Assembly: GCA_027485815.1 (NCBI GenBank)
Contig: JAIXQE010000072.1
Span: forward strand, 62,001-126,000
Direction of reading: 5' to 3'
DNA length: 64,000 nt
Origin: Opitutaceae bacterium
Lineage (GTDB): Bacteria; Verrucomicrobiota; Verrucomicrobiia; Opitutales; Opitutaceae
A program made the translations under genes and the position numbers. Below, piece after piece: positions 39,606 to 45,434 of this stretch (its first letter is position 1; each line of letters opens with the position of its first letter). Below the pieces are notes generated by a model that saw only the letters and a list, made by a program, of their open reading frames with translations, was not told where the DNA came from and ran no database searches.

Positions 39606-40381
39606 ACCTCCCCCGCCTGCTCCGTCATCTCATCCTCGCGCCCCTCGTGGGCCTGCTGCCCGTTTCCGCCGCCGCGCCCGCCGAGGCGCCGGGCACCGTG
39701 TACGAGCTCCGCACTTACGTCGCCGCGCCGGGCAAGGGCGAGGCCGTGCTGGCCCGCTTCCGCGAGCACACCACCCGTCTCTTCGAGCGCCACGGGATGG
39801 TGAACGTCGGCTATTGGGTGGCGGCGGACGCCAAGGACGGCGGCGGCGAGAAGCTCATTTACCTCCTCCGCCACCGCAGCCGTGAGGCCGCCAAGGCTTC
39901 CTGGCAGGCCTTCGTCGCCGATCCGGACTGGAAGGCGGTCGCCAAGGCCACCGAGGCCGGGGGCAAGATCGTCGCCAGCATCGAGTCGGTGTTTCTCGCC
40001 AGTACCGACTTCACCGCCCCGATGGACGCGGGCAACGGCGGCGCCGAGCGGGTCTTCGAGCTGCGCACGTACGTCGCCGCTCCCGGCAAGCTGCCCCGCC
40101 TCGACGCCCGCTTCCGCGACCACACCCGCGCCCTCTTCGCGCGCCACGGGATGACCAACCTCGGTTACTTCCACCCGGTCGATGCCGACAAGGGCGCCGG
40201 CACCACGCTGATCTACTTCCTGTCCTACCTGAGCCGCGACGCCGCCGCCGCCGCGTGGAACGGCTTCCGCAACGACCCGGACTGGGTGAAGGCCCGCACG
40301 GAGTCGGAGAAGGAAGGCAAGCTCACCGCCAAGGTGACGTCGGTCTACCTGAAGCCGACGGACTTCTCGCGGATTCGCTGA
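39602..40381 (+). CDS. Exported protein with two NIPSNAP domains
   Basis: A 259-residue protein: signal peptide (LILAPLVGLLPVSAAAPA), then two NIPSNAP repeats. The first starts VYELRTYVAAPGKGEAVLAR (about 33-140) and the second VFELRTYVAAPGKLPRLDAR (about 148-255). The units align well across RFREHTTRLFERHGMVNVGY / RFRDHTRALFARHGMTNLGY, so this is an internal duplication. The NIPSNAP fold is a ferredoxin-like dimeric barrel of unknown bacterial function. It is translationally coupled to the DTW gene. Confidence 0.88.
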   Translation: MNLPRLLRHLILAPLVGLLPVSAAAPAEAPGTVYELRTYVAAPGKGEAVLARFREHTTRLFERHGMVNVGYWVAADAKDGGGEKLIYLLRHRSREAAKASWQAFVADPDWKAVAKATEAGGKIVASIESVFLASTDFTAPMDAGNGGAERVFELRTYVAAPGKLPRLDARFRDHTRALFARHGMTNLGYFHPVDADKGAGTTLIYFLSYLSRDAAAAAWNGFRNDPDWVKARTESEKEGKLTAKVTSVYLKPTDFSRIR

Positions 40382-40443
40382 CCCGGGCCGCGCGCCCAGA
40401 ATCGCGTCGACTCCCGCCGCCGGTCCCGCCAACGATCGGGGTG

Positions 40444-40500
40444 CCGGCGGCGTCGTGGGTCAGGTTCGGCCCGGCCCGCCGCCGGTTCCCGCACCTGACC
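40444..40500 (+). promoter_or_regulatory. Possible pseudoknot leader of the downstream TonB receptor
   Basis: Two interleaved perfect inverted repeats: CCGGCGGCG (40444-40452) with CGCCGCCGG (40477-40485), and GGTCAGGT (40458-40465) with ACCTGACC (40493-40500). They could fold as an H-type pseudoknot whose last strand ends three bases before the ATG at 40504 and so could block ribosome binding. GC-rich sequence forms such repeats fairly often, so support is weak to moderate. Confidence 0.3.
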
Positions 40501-40503
40501 ACC

Positions 40504-43500
40504 ATGAAACGCACCTCGCTCCCTCCGCCCGCGTTCCGGGCTCTCCCGGCGGCCCTCCGCCTTTGGTTCCTGGCCCTCCTTGCCGGCGGCGCCGCCTTCG
40601 CCCAGGCCACCGGCTCGATCTCCGGATCGGTCGTCAGCTCCGCCACGCGCAACGCCCTCCAGGGCGCCACCGTGACGCTGCCCGCGCAGGGCCGCACGGA
40701 CTTCTCCGACAACGCGGGCTCGTTCCTCCTGCAGGGGGTCGCCCCCGGCCCGGTGGAACTGGTCGTCGCCTACACCGCCTTCGAGGAGCGGCGCGTCACC
40801 GTCACCGTCCGCGCCGGTGAGACCGCGCGCGTCGAGGTCGAGATGAAGCCTTCACAGGCCGTGGTGATGGACCGCTTCACCGTCGCCACCGTGCGCGAGG
40901 GGCAGTCGCTGGCCATCACCGAGCAGCGCAACGCGCTCAACGTGAAGAACGTCACCGCGCTCGACGAGTGGGGCGTGCTGCCCACCCAGAACGTCGGTGA
41001 ACTCGTCTCCCGGATGCCCGGCATCACGTTCACCACGGACGAGGACAACCTGATTAACAACGTGAGCATCGGCGGCCTCCCCGCGAGCTACACCCGGCTC
41101 AACATCGACGGCATGTCCTCGACCGGCGTCGGCGGCGACGGCCGCACCGCCACGCTGCATTCCTTCTCGGGCTCGATGTACGAGCAGGTCGAGATCATCG
41201 CCGGCCAGACGCCCGACAAGCGGGCCGATTCCCTCGGCGGCCAGCTCAACCTCAAGACCCGTTCGCCGCTCGCCATGGCCGAGCGCCGCCGCTTCTCCTA
41301 CACCGCTAGCGGCCGGTACTTCCCGTCGTGGTCCAAGCGGAACTTCGCCGTCTCCGAGCGCCCCCTGCGCCCGGACTTCAGCGCGGCCTACACCGAGGTG
41401 TTCAGCGTCGGCCAGGGGGTCCGCAACCTCGGCGTCGCGGTCACCGCCTCCTACCAGGAGGTGCTCAATCCGCACGATTGGGACATCCTCCTTTACGAGT
41501 CGACCGCCAACCCCGTGGCCCAATTGCGCGACTACACGCGGATGAGCGGCCTCAACGACCGCTTCCTTTCCGCGGTCAGCGCCCGCGTCGACTACAAGCT
41601 CTCCGAGGCGACGCGCGTCTCGTTCCGCTTCCTCTACAACGCGGGTTCGGAGCCGTTCTTCACCTACACCGCCGTCAACCCGTGGATCGCGAGCAACCTC
41701 ACGGTCAATTCCGCGACCAACCCGACCGGCGGCATCCGCGAGGGCTACACCGCCACGCGGATCGAGATGCTCCCGGTGAACAACACCGCGCTGCAGCCCG
41801 GTGGCGTCGCGGTCGGCGCCTCGCAGATGCGCCTCAATCCGCAGCGCTACTCCTTCACCAGCAAGAACCCGACCGGCACCCTCGCCTTTGAGCACAACTG
41901 GGGCCGCCTCCGGGTCGACCACGCCTACCGCTGGAGCAACACGCACTGGAACTCCGGGGCGGGCCGCAACCGGGAGAATGGCGCGGTCTCGATGCGCACC
42001 CGCGACGCGATCGGCTTCATCCTCGATTACAGCGATCCCGCCGGCCAGACGTTCTTCCCCACCGGCGGCGCCAGCGTCTACAGCGCCGCCAGCTACACGC
42101 CGTTCGTCACCGCCAACGCCTCCGCCGCCCAGCCCGTCCCCCAGACTTCGGTGGTGTTCAACAAGCGCGACACCGTGACCGACACCAACGAGGTCACCGC
42201 CAACGTGAATGCCGCCTACACGCTGGCCACCGCGTTGCCGATCACGCTCAAGGCCGGCCTCGAGTCGGTGAACCGCCGCGTCAACAACCGCCAAGTGTTC
42301 CCGCGCCGCTGGTACGGGGTGGTGGGTTCGGTGCTGCCGACCGACGGCCTGATGCCGCTCACCGAGTTCGAGCGCCAGAATGGCGGCCGTCGCCTGCCGG
42401 TGGTCGATCCCGCCGCCATCAGCACCACCCTCGGCAATTCCGCGCTGTGGTATGAGGACGTGAACTTCACCGCCACCTCGCAGTACACGAACCGCCGCAT
42501 CCTCGAGGAGGGCGTCGACTCCGCTTACGCTCAGGGCACGGTGCGCCTCGGCGCCCTCACGGTCCTCGGCGGCGTCCGGCGCGAATGGGTGTCCACCGAC
42601 ACGTTCACCTACTTCCGCGCCCGCACGACGCCCATCGCCACGGAGCCCGACCACTTCAAGCGCGCCGCGCTCGACTTCCAGCGGCTGTCCAAGGACGGGG
42701 AGTACGCGAAGGCCTTCCCCAGCCTGCACCTCGCCTACGACATCACCGCCAACCTGAAGGCCCGGGCCAGCTGGTCCACCAGTTACGGCCGGGCGCCGCT
42801 CGCCTCGCTCATCGCCTCCGCCACGGCGAATGATGCGGCCCGCACGGTCACGATGGGCAACCCGGACCTGCAGCCCCAGCTCGGCCGCAACATCGACCTC
42901 AAGCTCGAGTACTACCACCGCGACGGCACCATCTCGGTGCGCGGCTACCGCAAGGAGATCTCCGATTACATCGGGCCCTCCGGGCGCTCCGGCGAGGTGA
43001 TCGGCGGCGGCTCCGACAACGGTTTCGACGGCCTCTACGAAGGCTACGAGATCGTGCAGGCCCGCAATCTGGGCGACGCCCTCTACCGCGGCCTCGAGGT
43101 CGACTTCCGGCAGCGCCTCTCGTTCCTGCCCGGCGCCTTCCGCGGACTCACCGTGCGCGCGAACTACACGTACCTGCGCTCGCAGGGCAACTTCGGCGCC
43201 ACCGCCGCGATCGCCAACGGCAATCTCGGCGGCTTCATCCCGAAGGCCTACAACGTCGGACTGCTCTACGCCTACGGGAATTTCGGCGCCTCGTTCGACG
43301 TGAACTACACCGGTGCCTGGCCGGTCCTGAACGTCAGCACGACCGCCCCGCAGACCAACCGTTACCGCGAGGAGTGGCGCGTGATGAACACGGGCGTGAC
43401 GTACCGCTTCCGCCGCGACACGACGGCCTTCCTCAGCGTCAACAACCTCGCCGAGGCGGGTCGCCGGGAGTACATCTTCAACGCCAGCCGGGTCCGCTCC

Positions 43501-43551
43501 AACTGGGTGATCCCGCGCACGCTGAAGTTCGGCATCACCGGGCAATTCTGA
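40504..43551 (+). CDS. TonB-dependent receptor with carboxypeptidase-regulatory-like domain
   Basis: A 1015-residue outer-membrane receptor: signal peptide (FLALLAGGAAFAQA), carboxypeptidase-regulatory-like domain (SGSVVSSATRNALQGATVTL, about 40-115), plug (NVGELVSRMPGITFTTDEDN; EQVEIIAGQTPDKRADSLGG) and a long barrel ending KFGITGQF. The frame extends upstream to 40255, but the ATG at 40504 precedes the signal peptide. It is a single-gene unit followed by a strong terminator. Substrate unknown; no partner enzyme is adjacent. Confidence 0.92.
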   Translation: MKRTSLPPPAFRALPAALRLWFLALLAGGAAFAQATGSISGSVVSSATRNALQGATVTLPAQGRTDFSDNAGSFLLQGVAPGPVELVVAYTAFEERRVTVTVRAGETARVEVEMKPSQAVVMDRFTVATVREGQSLAITEQRNALNVKNVTALDEWGVLPTQNVGELVSRMPGITFTTDEDNLINNVSIGGLPASYTRLNIDGMSSTGVGGDGRTATLHSFSGSMYEQVEIIAGQTPDKRADSLGGQLNLKTRSPLAMAERRRFSYTASGRYFPSWSKRNFAVSERPLRPDFSAAYTEVFSVGQGVRNLGVAVTASYQEVLNPHDWDILLYESTANPVAQLRDYTRMSGLNDRFLSAVSARVDYKLSEATRVSFRFLYNAGSEPFFTYTAVNPWIASNLTVNSATNPTGGIREGYTATRIEMLPVNNTALQPGGVAVGASQMRLNPQRYSFTSKNPTGTLAFEHNWGRLRVDHAYRWSNTHWNSGAGRNRENGAVSMRTRDAIGFILDYSDPAGQTFFPTGGASVYSAASYTPFVTANASAAQPVPQTSVVFNKRDTVTDTNEVTANVNAAYTLATALPITLKAGLESVNRRVNNRQVFPRRWYGVVGSVLPTDGLMPLTEFERQNGGRRLPVVDPAAISTTLGNSALWYEDVNFTATSQYTNRRILEEGVDSAYAQGTVRLGALTVLGGVRREWVSTDTFTYFRARTTPIATEPDHFKRAALDFQRLSKDGEYAKAFPSLHLAYDITANLKARASWSTSYGRAPLASLIASATANDAARTVTMGNPDLQPQLGRNIDLKLEYYHRDGTISVRGYRKEISDYIGPSGRSGEVIGGGSDNGFDGLYEGYEIVQARNLGDALYRGLEVDFRQRLSFLPGAFRGLTVRANYTYLRSQGNFGATAAIANGNLGGFIPKAYNVGLLYAYGNFGASFDVNYTGAWPVLNVSTTAPQTNRYREEWRVMNTGVTYRFRRDTTAFLSVNNLAEAGRREYIFNASRVRSNWVIPRTLKFGITGQF

Positions 43552-43588
43552 GGCCTCCGGCCCGACGATTCAGCTTCCGTCTCCTTCC

Positions 43589-43617
43589 GGGCGGCCCTGC
43601 GGGGCCGCCCGTTTTCT
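43589..43617 (+). terminator. Rho-independent terminator of the TonB receptor gene
   Basis: A perfect 9-bp stem GGGCGGCCC/GGGCCGCCC with a four-base loop (43589-43610) is followed by GTTTTCTTT. It lies 38 bp after the receptor stop and separates it from the toxin-antitoxin gene. Confidence 0.88.
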
Positions 43618-43678: not shown

Positions 43679-43704
43679 TTGACAATCAGACCAAGGCTGG
43701 TCTG
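43679..43704 (+). promoter_or_regulatory. Promoter -35 box and palindromic operator of the fused toxin-antitoxin gene
   Basis: A perfect TTGACA (43679-43684) is followed three bases later by an 18-bp palindrome CAGACCA-AGGC-TGGTCTG (43687-43704), which would lie between the -35 and -10 elements and therefore look like an autorepression operator for the Phd-type DNA-binding domain. No clear -10 sequence is visible. With a 17-bp spacer transcription would begin at about 43714, essentially at the ATG (43715), hinting at a leaderless mRNA. Confidence 0.6.
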
Positions 43705-43714
43705 GTCTTAGCTG

Positions 43715-44371
43715 ATGAAGCTCGTCAACATCCAGGCCGCGAAGACGCATCTTTCCCGCCTGGTCGAGGAGGTGGTGGCGGGCGAGGAGGTGGTGCTCGC
43801 GAAGTCGGGCAAGCCGCTGGTGCGGCTGTTGCGCTACGCCCAACCACGGTCGCGGCGGACCCCCGGGGCGCTCGCCGGCCAGATCTGGGAGGCCCCGGAT
43901 TGCTGGGCGCCAGGTCCGAGCGAGCTCGAGGCTTCGATCGAGGCGCCTTTGCTGCTGGAGCCGCCCGCGCCGGCTCTCGCGCCCCGCCTGCCTCGCCGGT
44001 TGTTGATCGATTCCCCCGTGGTGGTCTGGTGGCTGTGCGCGCCCGAACGGCTGACCACTGAGACCCGGAACCTGATCAGTTCACCCGATCACGAGGTGTT
44101 CCTCAGCGCGGCCACGGTGTGGGAGCTCGGACTCAAGCTCGCCCGCGGCAAGCTCAAGCTCCCGGAGGCCTACGCGGGCACGCTGCTCGCGGATGGCTGG
44201 CGGGAACTGCCGGTGACCATCGCCCACGGAGCTCGCGCCGTGCACCTGCCACCGCTGCACGCCGACCCGTTCGACCGCCTCCTGATCGCGCAGGCCCTCG
44301 AGGAGGAGCTGGTGCTCGTCACGGCCGACCGGATTCTGGCGGCCTATCCGATTCGCATCCAGGTCGCGTGA
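43715..44371 (+). CDS. Fused type II toxin-antitoxin: Phd/YefM antitoxin joined to PIN (VapC-like) toxin
   Basis: A single 218-residue ORF combines two proteins that are normally separate. Residues 1-78 are a Phd/YefM-type antitoxin (MKLVNIQAAKTHLSRLVEEV; VLAKSGKPLVRLL; tail EAPDCWAPGPSELEASIE). A Pro-rich linker (79-94) follows, then a PIN RNase domain (95-218). The PIN acidic residues are all kept: D99 (RRLLIDS), E137 (TVWELGLK), D184/D187 (HADPFDR) and D205 (VTADR). There is no stop or frameshift between the parts. An in-frame TTG at 44000 could give a free toxin, but it lacks a ribosome site. It is preceded by its own operator. Confidence 0.85.
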   Translation: MKLVNIQAAKTHLSRLVEEVVAGEEVVLAKSGKPLVRLLRYAQPRSRRTPGALAGQIWEAPDCWAPGPSELEASIEAPLLLEPPAPALAPRLPRRLLIDSPVVVWWLCAPERLTTETRNLISSPDHEVFLSAATVWELGLKLARGKLKLPEAYAGTLLADGWRELPVTIAHGARAVHLPPLHADPFDRLLIAQALEEELVLVTADRILAAYPIRIQVA

Positions 44372-44387: not shown

Positions 44388-45434
44388 ATGACCTCGATTT
44401 CGCCCGTGATCCCGATCGAGAGCACCTGCCGTCGGCCGCGCCGATGGTTCGCACGCAGGTGCGGGTTCTTTGTGGGATTCGCCCTCGCCGGCGTGGGGTG
44501 GGGTGCGGCGCCGGACGTGGTGCCGCCGCTGCCGGCGGCGGCCGCGGCCCTGGTGGGGGCGGGGGAGGACTTCCCGCGGGCGCCGACCACCTGGCTCGAG
44601 GCGCAGGTGGAGTTGTCCCGGCGTGGATTTTCGGGCGGTCCCATCGACGGACTTGCCGGGCCCCAGTCCACCGCGGCCCTCCGCGCCTTCCAGCGCCGGG
44701 AGGGCCTGAGCGAGACGGGGGTCCTGGATGCGGCAACCCGGGAGGTGTTGGTCCTGGAGGCTCCGGCGCTGACCTGGGCGTCGCTGTCGGCGGAAGATTT
44801 GGCAGGTCTGCGGCCGGTGCCGGAGACGTGGCAGGGTAAGGCGGCGGCGGAGGGCCTACCCCACGCGACGCCGCTGGAGTTGCTGGCGGAGCGGTACCGG
44901 GCAGGGGAGCGCTTCCTGCGGCGACTCAATCCGGGCGTCGACTGGGAGGCGCTCACCCCGGAGACCTTGGTGGTGGTCCCGGCGGCGGAGGTGGTCGTGC
45001 GGCCCGGCGTGGCGGCGCGGCTGCAGATCCGCCTCGCGGCGCGGGAGTTGGAGGTCACGGATGCCGCCGGGCGGGTGATCGCCCATTTTCCGGTGAGCAT
45101 CGCCCGGCGGGTGGAGAAGCGTCCGGTTGGGGAGTTGCGGGTGCGGGTGGTGGTGGCGGGGCCGGACTACACCTTTGATCCGGCGTTGTTCGCGGATTCC
45201 GCGGAGGCGCGGGAATTGGGGGGCCGGAAGCTGATCTTGCCGCCGGGCCCGAATAATCCGGTGGGCGTGGCGTGGATCGGATTGGATCGGCCTGGATACG
45301 GCATTCACGGCACGCCCGAGCCGGGGAACGTGGGGCGCACGGAATCGCTGGGCTGTTTCCGCCTCGCGAACTGGGACGCGCAGACCCTGCTGGGCCTCGC
45401 GTGGGTGGGCCTGCCCGTGCTCGTCGAGCCCTGA
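44388..45434 (+). CDS. L,D-transpeptidase (YkuD) with peptidoglycan-binding domain
   Basis: A 348-residue exported L,D-transpeptidase that would crosslink peptidoglycan 3-3 or attach proteins to it. N-terminal membrane/signal segment (FFVGFALAGVGWG), peptidoglycan_binding_1 domain at about 65-120 (GPIDGLAGPQSTAALRAFQR), a LysM-like stretch (LLAERYRAGERFLRRLNPGV) and the YkuD catalytic domain with HGTPEPGNVG and catalytic Cys in SLGCFRLAN. ATG 44388 lies 16 bp after the toxin-antitoxin stop. Readthrough from that promoter is possible but there is no clear functional link. Confidence 0.9.
   Translation: MTSISPVIPIESTCRRPRRWFARRCGFFVGFALAGVGWGAAPDVVPPLPAAAAALVGAGEDFPRAPTTWLEAQVELSRRGFSGGPIDGLAGPQSTAALRAFQRREGLSETGVLDAATREVLVLEAPALTWASLSAEDLAGLRPVPETWQGKAAAEGLPHATPLELLAERYRAGERFLRRLNPGVDWEALTPETLVVVPAAEVVVRPGVAARLQIRLAARELEVTDAAGRVIAHFPVSIARRVEKRPVGELRVRVVVAGPDYTFDPALFADSAEARELGGRKLILPPGPNNPVGVAWIGLDRPGYGIHGTPEPGNVGRTESLGCFRLANWDAQTLLGLAWVGLPVLVEP

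What the first reader, a model, noticed from the sequence alone, without database searches (positions are those of the whole stretch)
43715..44371. Antitoxin and PIN toxin fused in one 218-residue protein
A Phd/YefM-type antitoxin (1-78) is joined by a Pro-rich linker to a complete PIN toxin (95-218) with all catalytic acidic residues (D99, E137, D184/D187, D205) intact. In type II systems the two are normally separate proteins so that proteolysis of the antitoxin frees the toxin. A covalent fusion would need cleavage, an internal start (an in-frame TTG lies at 44000) or have lost toxicity. It is uninterrupted, with no frameshift. Whether the fusion is new or has relatives I cannot tell.
Basis: partly seen in the sequence, partly recalled or inferred. 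Interest (0 to 1): 0.75.

Follow-up and report, generated by a model that had tools for sequence, protein, structure and literature searches.

The report
Single-gene fused Phd–VapC toxin–antitoxin
A bacterial gene pair that normally makes a poison and its antidote as two proteins has become one gene making a single joined protein, seen in two related species and kept by selection; this is unusual for this family, though other poison–antidote families are known to have been joined in the same way.

Summary
Window 43715-44371 (+) is one uninterrupted 218-residue ORF: a Phd/YefM antitoxin (PF02604, residues 1-46, plus its tail) followed by a complete PIN/VapC toxin (PF01850, 97-211) with the catalytic acids present. 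It derives from an ordinary two-gene Phd/YefM–VapC module found in other Opitutaceae-type genomes. The "Pro-rich linker" is that antitoxin's own tail; the stop codon and the toxin's ATG are both gone.

One relative is confirmed, in a second species of the genus (62-65% identical, same neighbours: TonB receptor upstream, L,D-transpeptidase downstream). A third species has the toxin end at that site, cut by a contig edge. Of 85 fetched loci (some redundant) holding both parts, only records of these two genes have them in one frame. The pair forms a clade in both half-trees, and both halves show purifying selection (dN/dS 0.16 and 0.22), so a sequencing error or fresh pseudogene is unlikely. The family's inverted repeat lies intact 11 bases before the start codon.

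Most likely it is a self-repressed, cis-inhibited VapC, as EzeT is for zeta toxins; activity is untested. The TTG at 44000 has no SD-like sequence. New variant of a known kind: my paper searches turned up no Phd/YefM–PIN fusion.

The parts
43715..44371 (+). fused Phd/YefM–PIN (VapC) gene, 218 aa, ATG to TGA
43715..43948 (+). antitoxin half, residues 1-78 (Pfam PhdYeFM_antitox 1-46)
43949..43999 (+). junction, residues 79-95: the former antitoxin tail; residues 82-90 have pLDDT under 50
44000..44368 (+). PIN/VapC toxin half, residues 96-218, with D99, E137, D184, D187, D205
43688..43703 (+). inverted repeat AGACCA-N4-TGGTCT, putative autoregulatory operator of the family
   Evidence: binding not tested
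43588..43611 (+). terminator-like hairpin behind the TonB receptor gene
   Evidence: 2 terminator-like sites found in the stretch, 1.0 expected in shuffles
43949..43951 (+). TTG codon 79 with GAGG 5 bases upstream: weak candidate internal start
40255..43551 (+). context: TonB-dependent receptor (mechanical ORF start)
44388..45434 (+). context: L,D-transpeptidase with peptidoglycan-binding domain, 16 bases behind the fused stop

Best explanation
This is a one-gene version of a type II Phd/YefM–VapC module. Shown: the closest relatives are two-gene modules; here the antitoxin's stop codon and the toxin's start codon are absent and the protein is continuous; a fused gene sits at the same chromosomal site in two species; both halves show purifying selection between them. 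Inferred: the fusion happened once, from a two-gene ancestor; the antitoxin half still dimerises and represses its own promoter through the inverted repeat just upstream; its tail covers the PIN active site in cis (or across a dimer), so the RNase is made already inhibited and always one-to-one with its antidote; it would become active only if the disordered stretch at residues ~82-90 is cut or the antitoxin half is displaced or remodelled.
For: Open 218-residue frame with both Pfam domains above their cut-offs. Junctions: of 32 loci given to the call, 21 gave two-gene rows (toxin start -4 to +15 bases from the antitoxin stop), 2 were fused, 9 gave no row because the motif search missed a part. 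Profile scan of all 121 loci then held: 85 loci with both parts, 7 of them with both in one frame, all records of two genes, G000 and G012. Second fused gene with the same flanks: TonB 78%, fused gene 62%, L,D-transpeptidase 66% identical. The fused pair is one clade, 89/87 in the toxin tree (24 rows) and 97/95 in the antitoxin tree (28 rows). dN/dS: antitoxin 0.162 (95% bootstrap 0.063-0.289), toxin 0.22 (0.11-0.351), junction 0.409 (0.082-1.236, unresolved); flanking transpeptidase and TonB genes about 0.24 and 0.19, computed. Inverted repeat retained. Junction disordered and PIN domain confident in both AlphaFold models. Precedent: EzeT's N-terminal domain quenches its toxin in cis, and deleting it strongly reduces viability (PMC4826407, PMC4803016, passages).
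Against: No activity, cleavage or repression data. Only two complete fused genes are known; the public one is a metagenome bin. G000 has Pro where 19 of 24 relatives have His next to the catalytic Asp. The fused toxin end branches are long (0.44 and 0.28; median 0.2), and the toxin-tree support for the pair is not in the strongest class. Four close relatives have an empty site. In the AlphaFold monomer the antitoxin tail (41-80) has low confidence (block means 58-72), so inhibition in cis is not shown by the model.
Confidence: 0.6

Rival explanations
1. Tamed derivative: the fusion permanently inhibits the PIN domain, and the protein now serves mainly as a DNA-binding autoregulator or a non-toxic RNA-binding protein.
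For: Inverted repeat kept. His-to-Pro change beside D99 in G000. Longer toxin branches.
Against: The catalytic acids are kept in both orthologs, and toxin-half dN/dS is 0.22 (95% upper bound 0.351), within the range of the eight two-gene toxin pairs compared (about 0.03 to 0.26, computed).
Confidence: 0.22
2. A separate toxin is still made from an internal start inside the former antitoxin tail, so the locus still delivers two products.
For: GAGG-5nt-TTG at codon 79 here; GGAGG-5nt-GTG at codon 85 in G012, which also has further in-frame starts with SD-like sequence nearby (codons 71, 87). In the window's 35 long ORFs, 231 of 2641 (4-mer SD) and 60 of 2641 (5-mer SD) 26-codon stretches hold such a site.
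Against: The original toxin ATG is gone in both. TTG 44000 has no SD. The sites in the two genes are not at homologous positions, and the GAGG here falls in codons for the SIEAPL stretch that the two-gene relative G174 also has (sequence). The stretch searched (38 and 42 codons) was longer than the 26-codon control and was looked at after the fact, so the chance figures are too low.
Confidence: 0.13
3. Decaying module: the fusion is a step in the loss of the system at this site.
For: Four of the closest relatives have an empty site. A two-gene copy in G005 looks degraded, with a shortened antitoxin and altered PIN motifs.
Against: dN/dS well under 1 in both halves over divergence like that of the flanking genes (dS 1.22 against 1.06 and 0.78). 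A fusion is kept in two species.
Confidence: 0.05

Closest known systems
Phd/YefM–VapC (PIN) two-gene type II modules, e.g. Picosynechococcus sp. PCC 7117 WP_065711776/WP_065711775
   Same: same domains in the same order; the family toxins aligned share the catalytic residues and the family upstream regions share the inverted repeat
   Different: two proteins with a stop codon and a separate toxin start
EzeT (Escherichia coli fused antitoxin–zeta toxin)
   Same: N-terminal antitoxin and C-terminal toxin in one chain, thought to have arisen by fusion of a two-gene operon (PMC4826407, PMC4803016, passages)
   Different: unrelated toxin (UDP-GlcNAc kinase) and antitoxin; cis-quenching shown there, not here
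Phd–RelE fusion of Ralstonia eutropha (reported by Loris and Garcia-Pino 2014, as told in PMC4826407, passage)
   Same: a Phd antitoxin fused to a toxin
   Different: RelE toxin; truncations are thought to abolish toxin and antitoxin function there, whereas both halves look intact here
YefM–YoeB fusions (PMC11980606, passages: 5 prokaryotic, 2 eukaryotic)
   Same: Phd/YefM antitoxin at the N-terminus of a fused toxin
   Different: BECR-fold (YoeB) toxin, not PIN; the survey is of BECR-fold toxins
Fused HicAB/HicBA (PMC10865869, PMC4963859, passages) and CapRel (PMC10865869 passage; PMC9712102, PMC11578894, PMC13423816 seen as listing and start of abstract only)
   Same: toxin and antitoxin in one polypeptide; CapRel shows such a fusion can be phage-triggered
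   Different: different domains; no phage link found here and no PADLOC match

Membership tests
Phd/YefM antitoxin (PF02604) | Pfam gathering score reached | tested here: met
   35.2 bits against 29.8; ortholog 34.5
Phd/YefM antitoxin (PF02604) | binds its own operator | tested here: inconclusive
   conserved inverted repeat just upstream; binding itself not tested
VapC/PIN toxin (PF01850) | Pfam score and PIN fold | tested here: met
   56 bits against 23.6; VIA Z 14.7, rmsd 2.7, 121 aligned residues to 3zvk_C, VapBC2 of Rickettsia felis
VapC/PIN toxin (PF01850) | conserved catalytic acidic residues | tested here: met
   D99, E137, D184, D187, D205 present; their catalytic role is recalled family knowledge
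VapC/PIN toxin (PF01850) | RNase activity or toxicity | not testable with these tools
   needs an experiment
Type II toxin–antitoxin module | toxin and antitoxin made as two separate proteins | tested here: not met
   one open frame; stop and toxin ATG absent; a separate toxin from an internal start is not excluded
Single-chain (cis) toxin–antitoxin such as EzeT | antitoxin and toxin domains in one polypeptide | tested here: met
Single-chain (cis) toxin–antitoxin such as EzeT | toxin quenched in cis, released on removing the antitoxin domain | not testable with these tools
   needs an experiment

The most novel reading that the evidence does not exclude
The fused protein is a self-contained RNase sensor: always made inhibited and unable to fire through simple antitoxin turnover, it is released only when a specific trigger (a protease, or a phage protein binding the Phd half) frees the PIN domain, a VapC counterpart of CapRel.
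Probability: 0.12. Interest if true: 0.65.

Novelty: new variant of a known kind. Interest (0 to 1): 0.38.

Why it matters
A review passage I read calls VapBC 'by far the most numerous' toxin–antitoxin system (PMC4803016; the passage was cut off there), and the usual account of type II activation is proteolysis of a separate antitoxin (PMC4826407, passage). A naturally fused VapC kept by selection, with two-gene relatives and empty-site relatives in the same genus, makes it directly testable whether a covalently tied antitoxin can still act as a switch.

Tried and rejected
Sequencing error or hidden stop: rejected, because the assembly of another species also has a fusion at this site and the toxin ATG is gone in both.

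Common annotated family: rejected within what was searched. Among the match rows shown for 95 relatives (E <= 1e-10), 27 genus genomes (1e-15), 252 family genomes (1e-22), 372 order genomes (1e-20) and 387 phylum genomes (1e-20; sets overlap), only G000 and G012 matched over both domains from residue 1 without an internal stop. One further row, G018 (residues 25-214, no stop), also spans both; its antitoxin ORF lies in another frame and overlaps the toxin start (L016), and the profile scan did not put both parts in one frame. In the larger sweeps only about 7-11 first-look candidates per genome were scored, so weak ones could be missed. The profiles were built from this family, the two fused genes included, and the 121 loci are redundant. 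Plasmids: 362 of 72,556 records matched, 131 of them over at least 80% of the query; I saw the 30 best rows and 60 rows spread over the ranking. Six of the 60 spread rows were full-length in one piece: four Erwinia amylovora rows annotated as two genes, and two without annotation (H39, H48), which I opened and found to have an in-frame stop. The rows not listed were not seen. Phages: no match at E 1e-3. Viral contigs: no relative. Other phyla were sampled only through plasmids and phages.

Phage-defence label: no PADLOC match for the fused protein, its ortholog or the transpeptidase. Sigma-70-like promoter scan: none found. Solved structures by sequence: nothing better than E 0.49, an unrelated methyltransferase; Phd antitoxins at E 0.63 to 1.4. 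In the VIA list the antitoxin half was barely tested, because the PIN domain fills the rows.

Origin at the site: in the L,D-transpeptidase tree (24 sequences) G000 is sister to five species; four of them (G009, G010, G019, G007) show TonB directly followed by the transpeptidase, and the fifth (G021) has no TonB in the stretch held. G012 and G026 form another clade; G003, at the same level, has a TonB receptor and the transpeptidase without a match to the fused protein between them. One old gain with losses, or two gains, both fit; similar dS of fused gene and neighbours favours the old gain.

Literature: searched for fused toxin–antitoxin, VapBC fusion wordings, PhdYefM with PIN, EzeT with VapC, and PF02604 with PF01850. 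I saw no report of a Phd/YefM–PIN fusion; of the papers listed I read passages of six only, and most subscription papers are not held.

Full report
The ORF at 43715-44371 (+) is open from ATG to TGA and encodes 218 residues. Pfam finds PhdYeFM_antitox at 1-46 and PIN at 97-211, both above their curated cut-offs; NCBIfam finds the phd family at 5-39. The window lies in a 4.08 Mb, 232-contig, 97%-complete genome. The eight named relatives found in genome contigs are all titled as metagenome-assembled Opitutae/Opitutaceae or other Verrucomicrobia.

Origin. Closely related modules are two-gene. The toxin start lies -4 to +15 bases from the antitoxin stop (32 loci given: 21 two-gene rows, of which L101 and L068 look like one gene, 2 fused, 9 without a row). 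Several have both genes in one frame with a single stop and one codon between (G174, G340, G615, G616). Where these read antitoxin-tail, stop, one codon, Met-Arg-Leu-Leu, the window gene reads Leu-Pro-Arg-Arg-Leu-Leu and G012 reads Leu-Pro-Arg-Arg-Pro-Arg-Ala-Leu-Arg-Leu-Leu. The Pro-rich stretch is therefore the old antitoxin tail, and the toxin's start codon is gone in both. That the shared Leu-Pro-Arg-Arg goes back to one fusion event is an inference; the trees agree with it (fused pair one clade, 89/87 for the toxin half, 97/95 for the antitoxin half).

Distribution. In the genus (27 genomes) and family (252 genomes), G000 and G012 alone gave full-length matches without an internal stop. 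In samples of the order (372) and phylum (387) only G000 did; neither sample returned G012. G018 gave a stop-free row from residue 25, but its antitoxin is in another frame. A profile scan over the 121 loci held found antitoxin and toxin together in 85 loci and in one frame in 7, all records of those two genes. A third species, G026, has only the last 55 toxin codons at a contig edge, followed by the same transpeptidase gene; whether it is fused is unknown.

Site. TonB receptor, fused gene and L,D-transpeptidase stand in this order in G000 and G012. In G009, G010, G019 and G007 the TonB receptor (89-92% identical to the window's) is followed directly by the transpeptidase (sequence): an empty site. 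G010 and G019 have a two-gene copy on another contig. In G000 the transpeptidase starts 16 bases after the fused stop, while a terminator-like hairpin lies between TonB and the fused gene, so the transpeptidase may be transcribed from the toxin–antitoxin promoter; this is inference.

Selection. Between G000 and G012, dN/dS is 0.162 (95% bootstrap 0.063-0.289) for residues 1-78 and 0.22 (0.11-0.351) for 96-218; the junction value, 0.409 (0.082-1.236), is not informative. dS is 1.15, 1.34 and 0.92 for antitoxin, toxin and junction, and 1.06 and 0.78 for the flanking transpeptidase and TonB genes, so the values are near saturation and rough. If the fusion happened once before the split, all of this constraint acted on the fused protein; if it happened twice, part of it predates fusion.

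Regulation. AGACCA-N4-TGGTCT at 43688-43703 is the only match in the window with up to one mismatch (expected 0.03), 11 bases before the start codon. It is exact in 21 of 29 and within one mismatch in 28 of 29 family upstream regions examined. Autorepression by the Phd half is inferred from family knowledge.

Structure. AlphaFold on a 16-row alignment gives mean pLDDT 83.7 and pTM 0.57: blocks of the PIN domain from residue 101 at 86-96, the N-terminal 40 residues at 83-85, residues 41-80 at 58-72, and 82-90 under 50. The ortholog gives 78.8 and 0.56, with 43-46, 58-66 and 77-93 under 50. The PIN half matches VapC structures (Foldseek; VIA Z 14.7, rmsd 2.7, 121 residues, 3zvk_C). The models do not fix how the tail and the active site meet.

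Translation. TTG 44000 has no SD-like sequence. GAGG five bases before a TTG at codon 79 here, and GGAGG five bases before a GTG at codon 85 in G012, leave an internal start possible. Such sites occur in 8.7% (4-mer) and 2.3% (5-mer) of 26-codon stretches of the window's long ORFs; the stretches I searched were longer (38 and 42 codons), so chance is somewhat higher.

Against the reading: no experiment; two complete genes only; His-to-Pro beside the catalytic Asp in the window's copy; longer than median toxin branches; patchy presence in the genus.

Known kind. Fused toxin–antitoxin proteins are described: EzeT and a Phd–RelE fusion (PMC4826407; EzeT also PMC4803016), HicAB Slr1999 (PMC4963859), 195 BECR-toxin fusions including YefM–YoeB (PMC11980606), HicA classes 11-13 (PMC10865869); passages were read in each. 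Makarova et al. 2009 (PMC2701414, passages) list PHD–PIN as neighbouring genes in the passages shown. I saw no printed Phd/YefM–PIN fusion.

Noticed in passing
44388-45434; L076, L077, L078, L080: The L,D-transpeptidase gene is found in 25 of 27 genus genomes. With the fused gene in place it starts 16 bases behind the fused stop instead of close behind the TonB terminator, which may change its control.
   Followed up: partly
L006 1473-2084 (G005; same as L070): A two-gene copy with a shortened antitoxin and altered PIN motifs (Asp at the position of E137, DPIDR in place of DPFDR), which looks like a module in decay.
   Followed up: partly
L002, L003, L004 (own genome, other contigs): Three further PIN toxins (36% identical to the window's) with separate upstream ORFs that by eye look like antitoxins.
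   Followed up: no
L082 after position 1159 (G003): Between TonB and the transpeptidase, where no toxin–antitoxin match is found, there is a near-palindrome TTTTCACGTAATACGTGAAAA.
   Followed up: no
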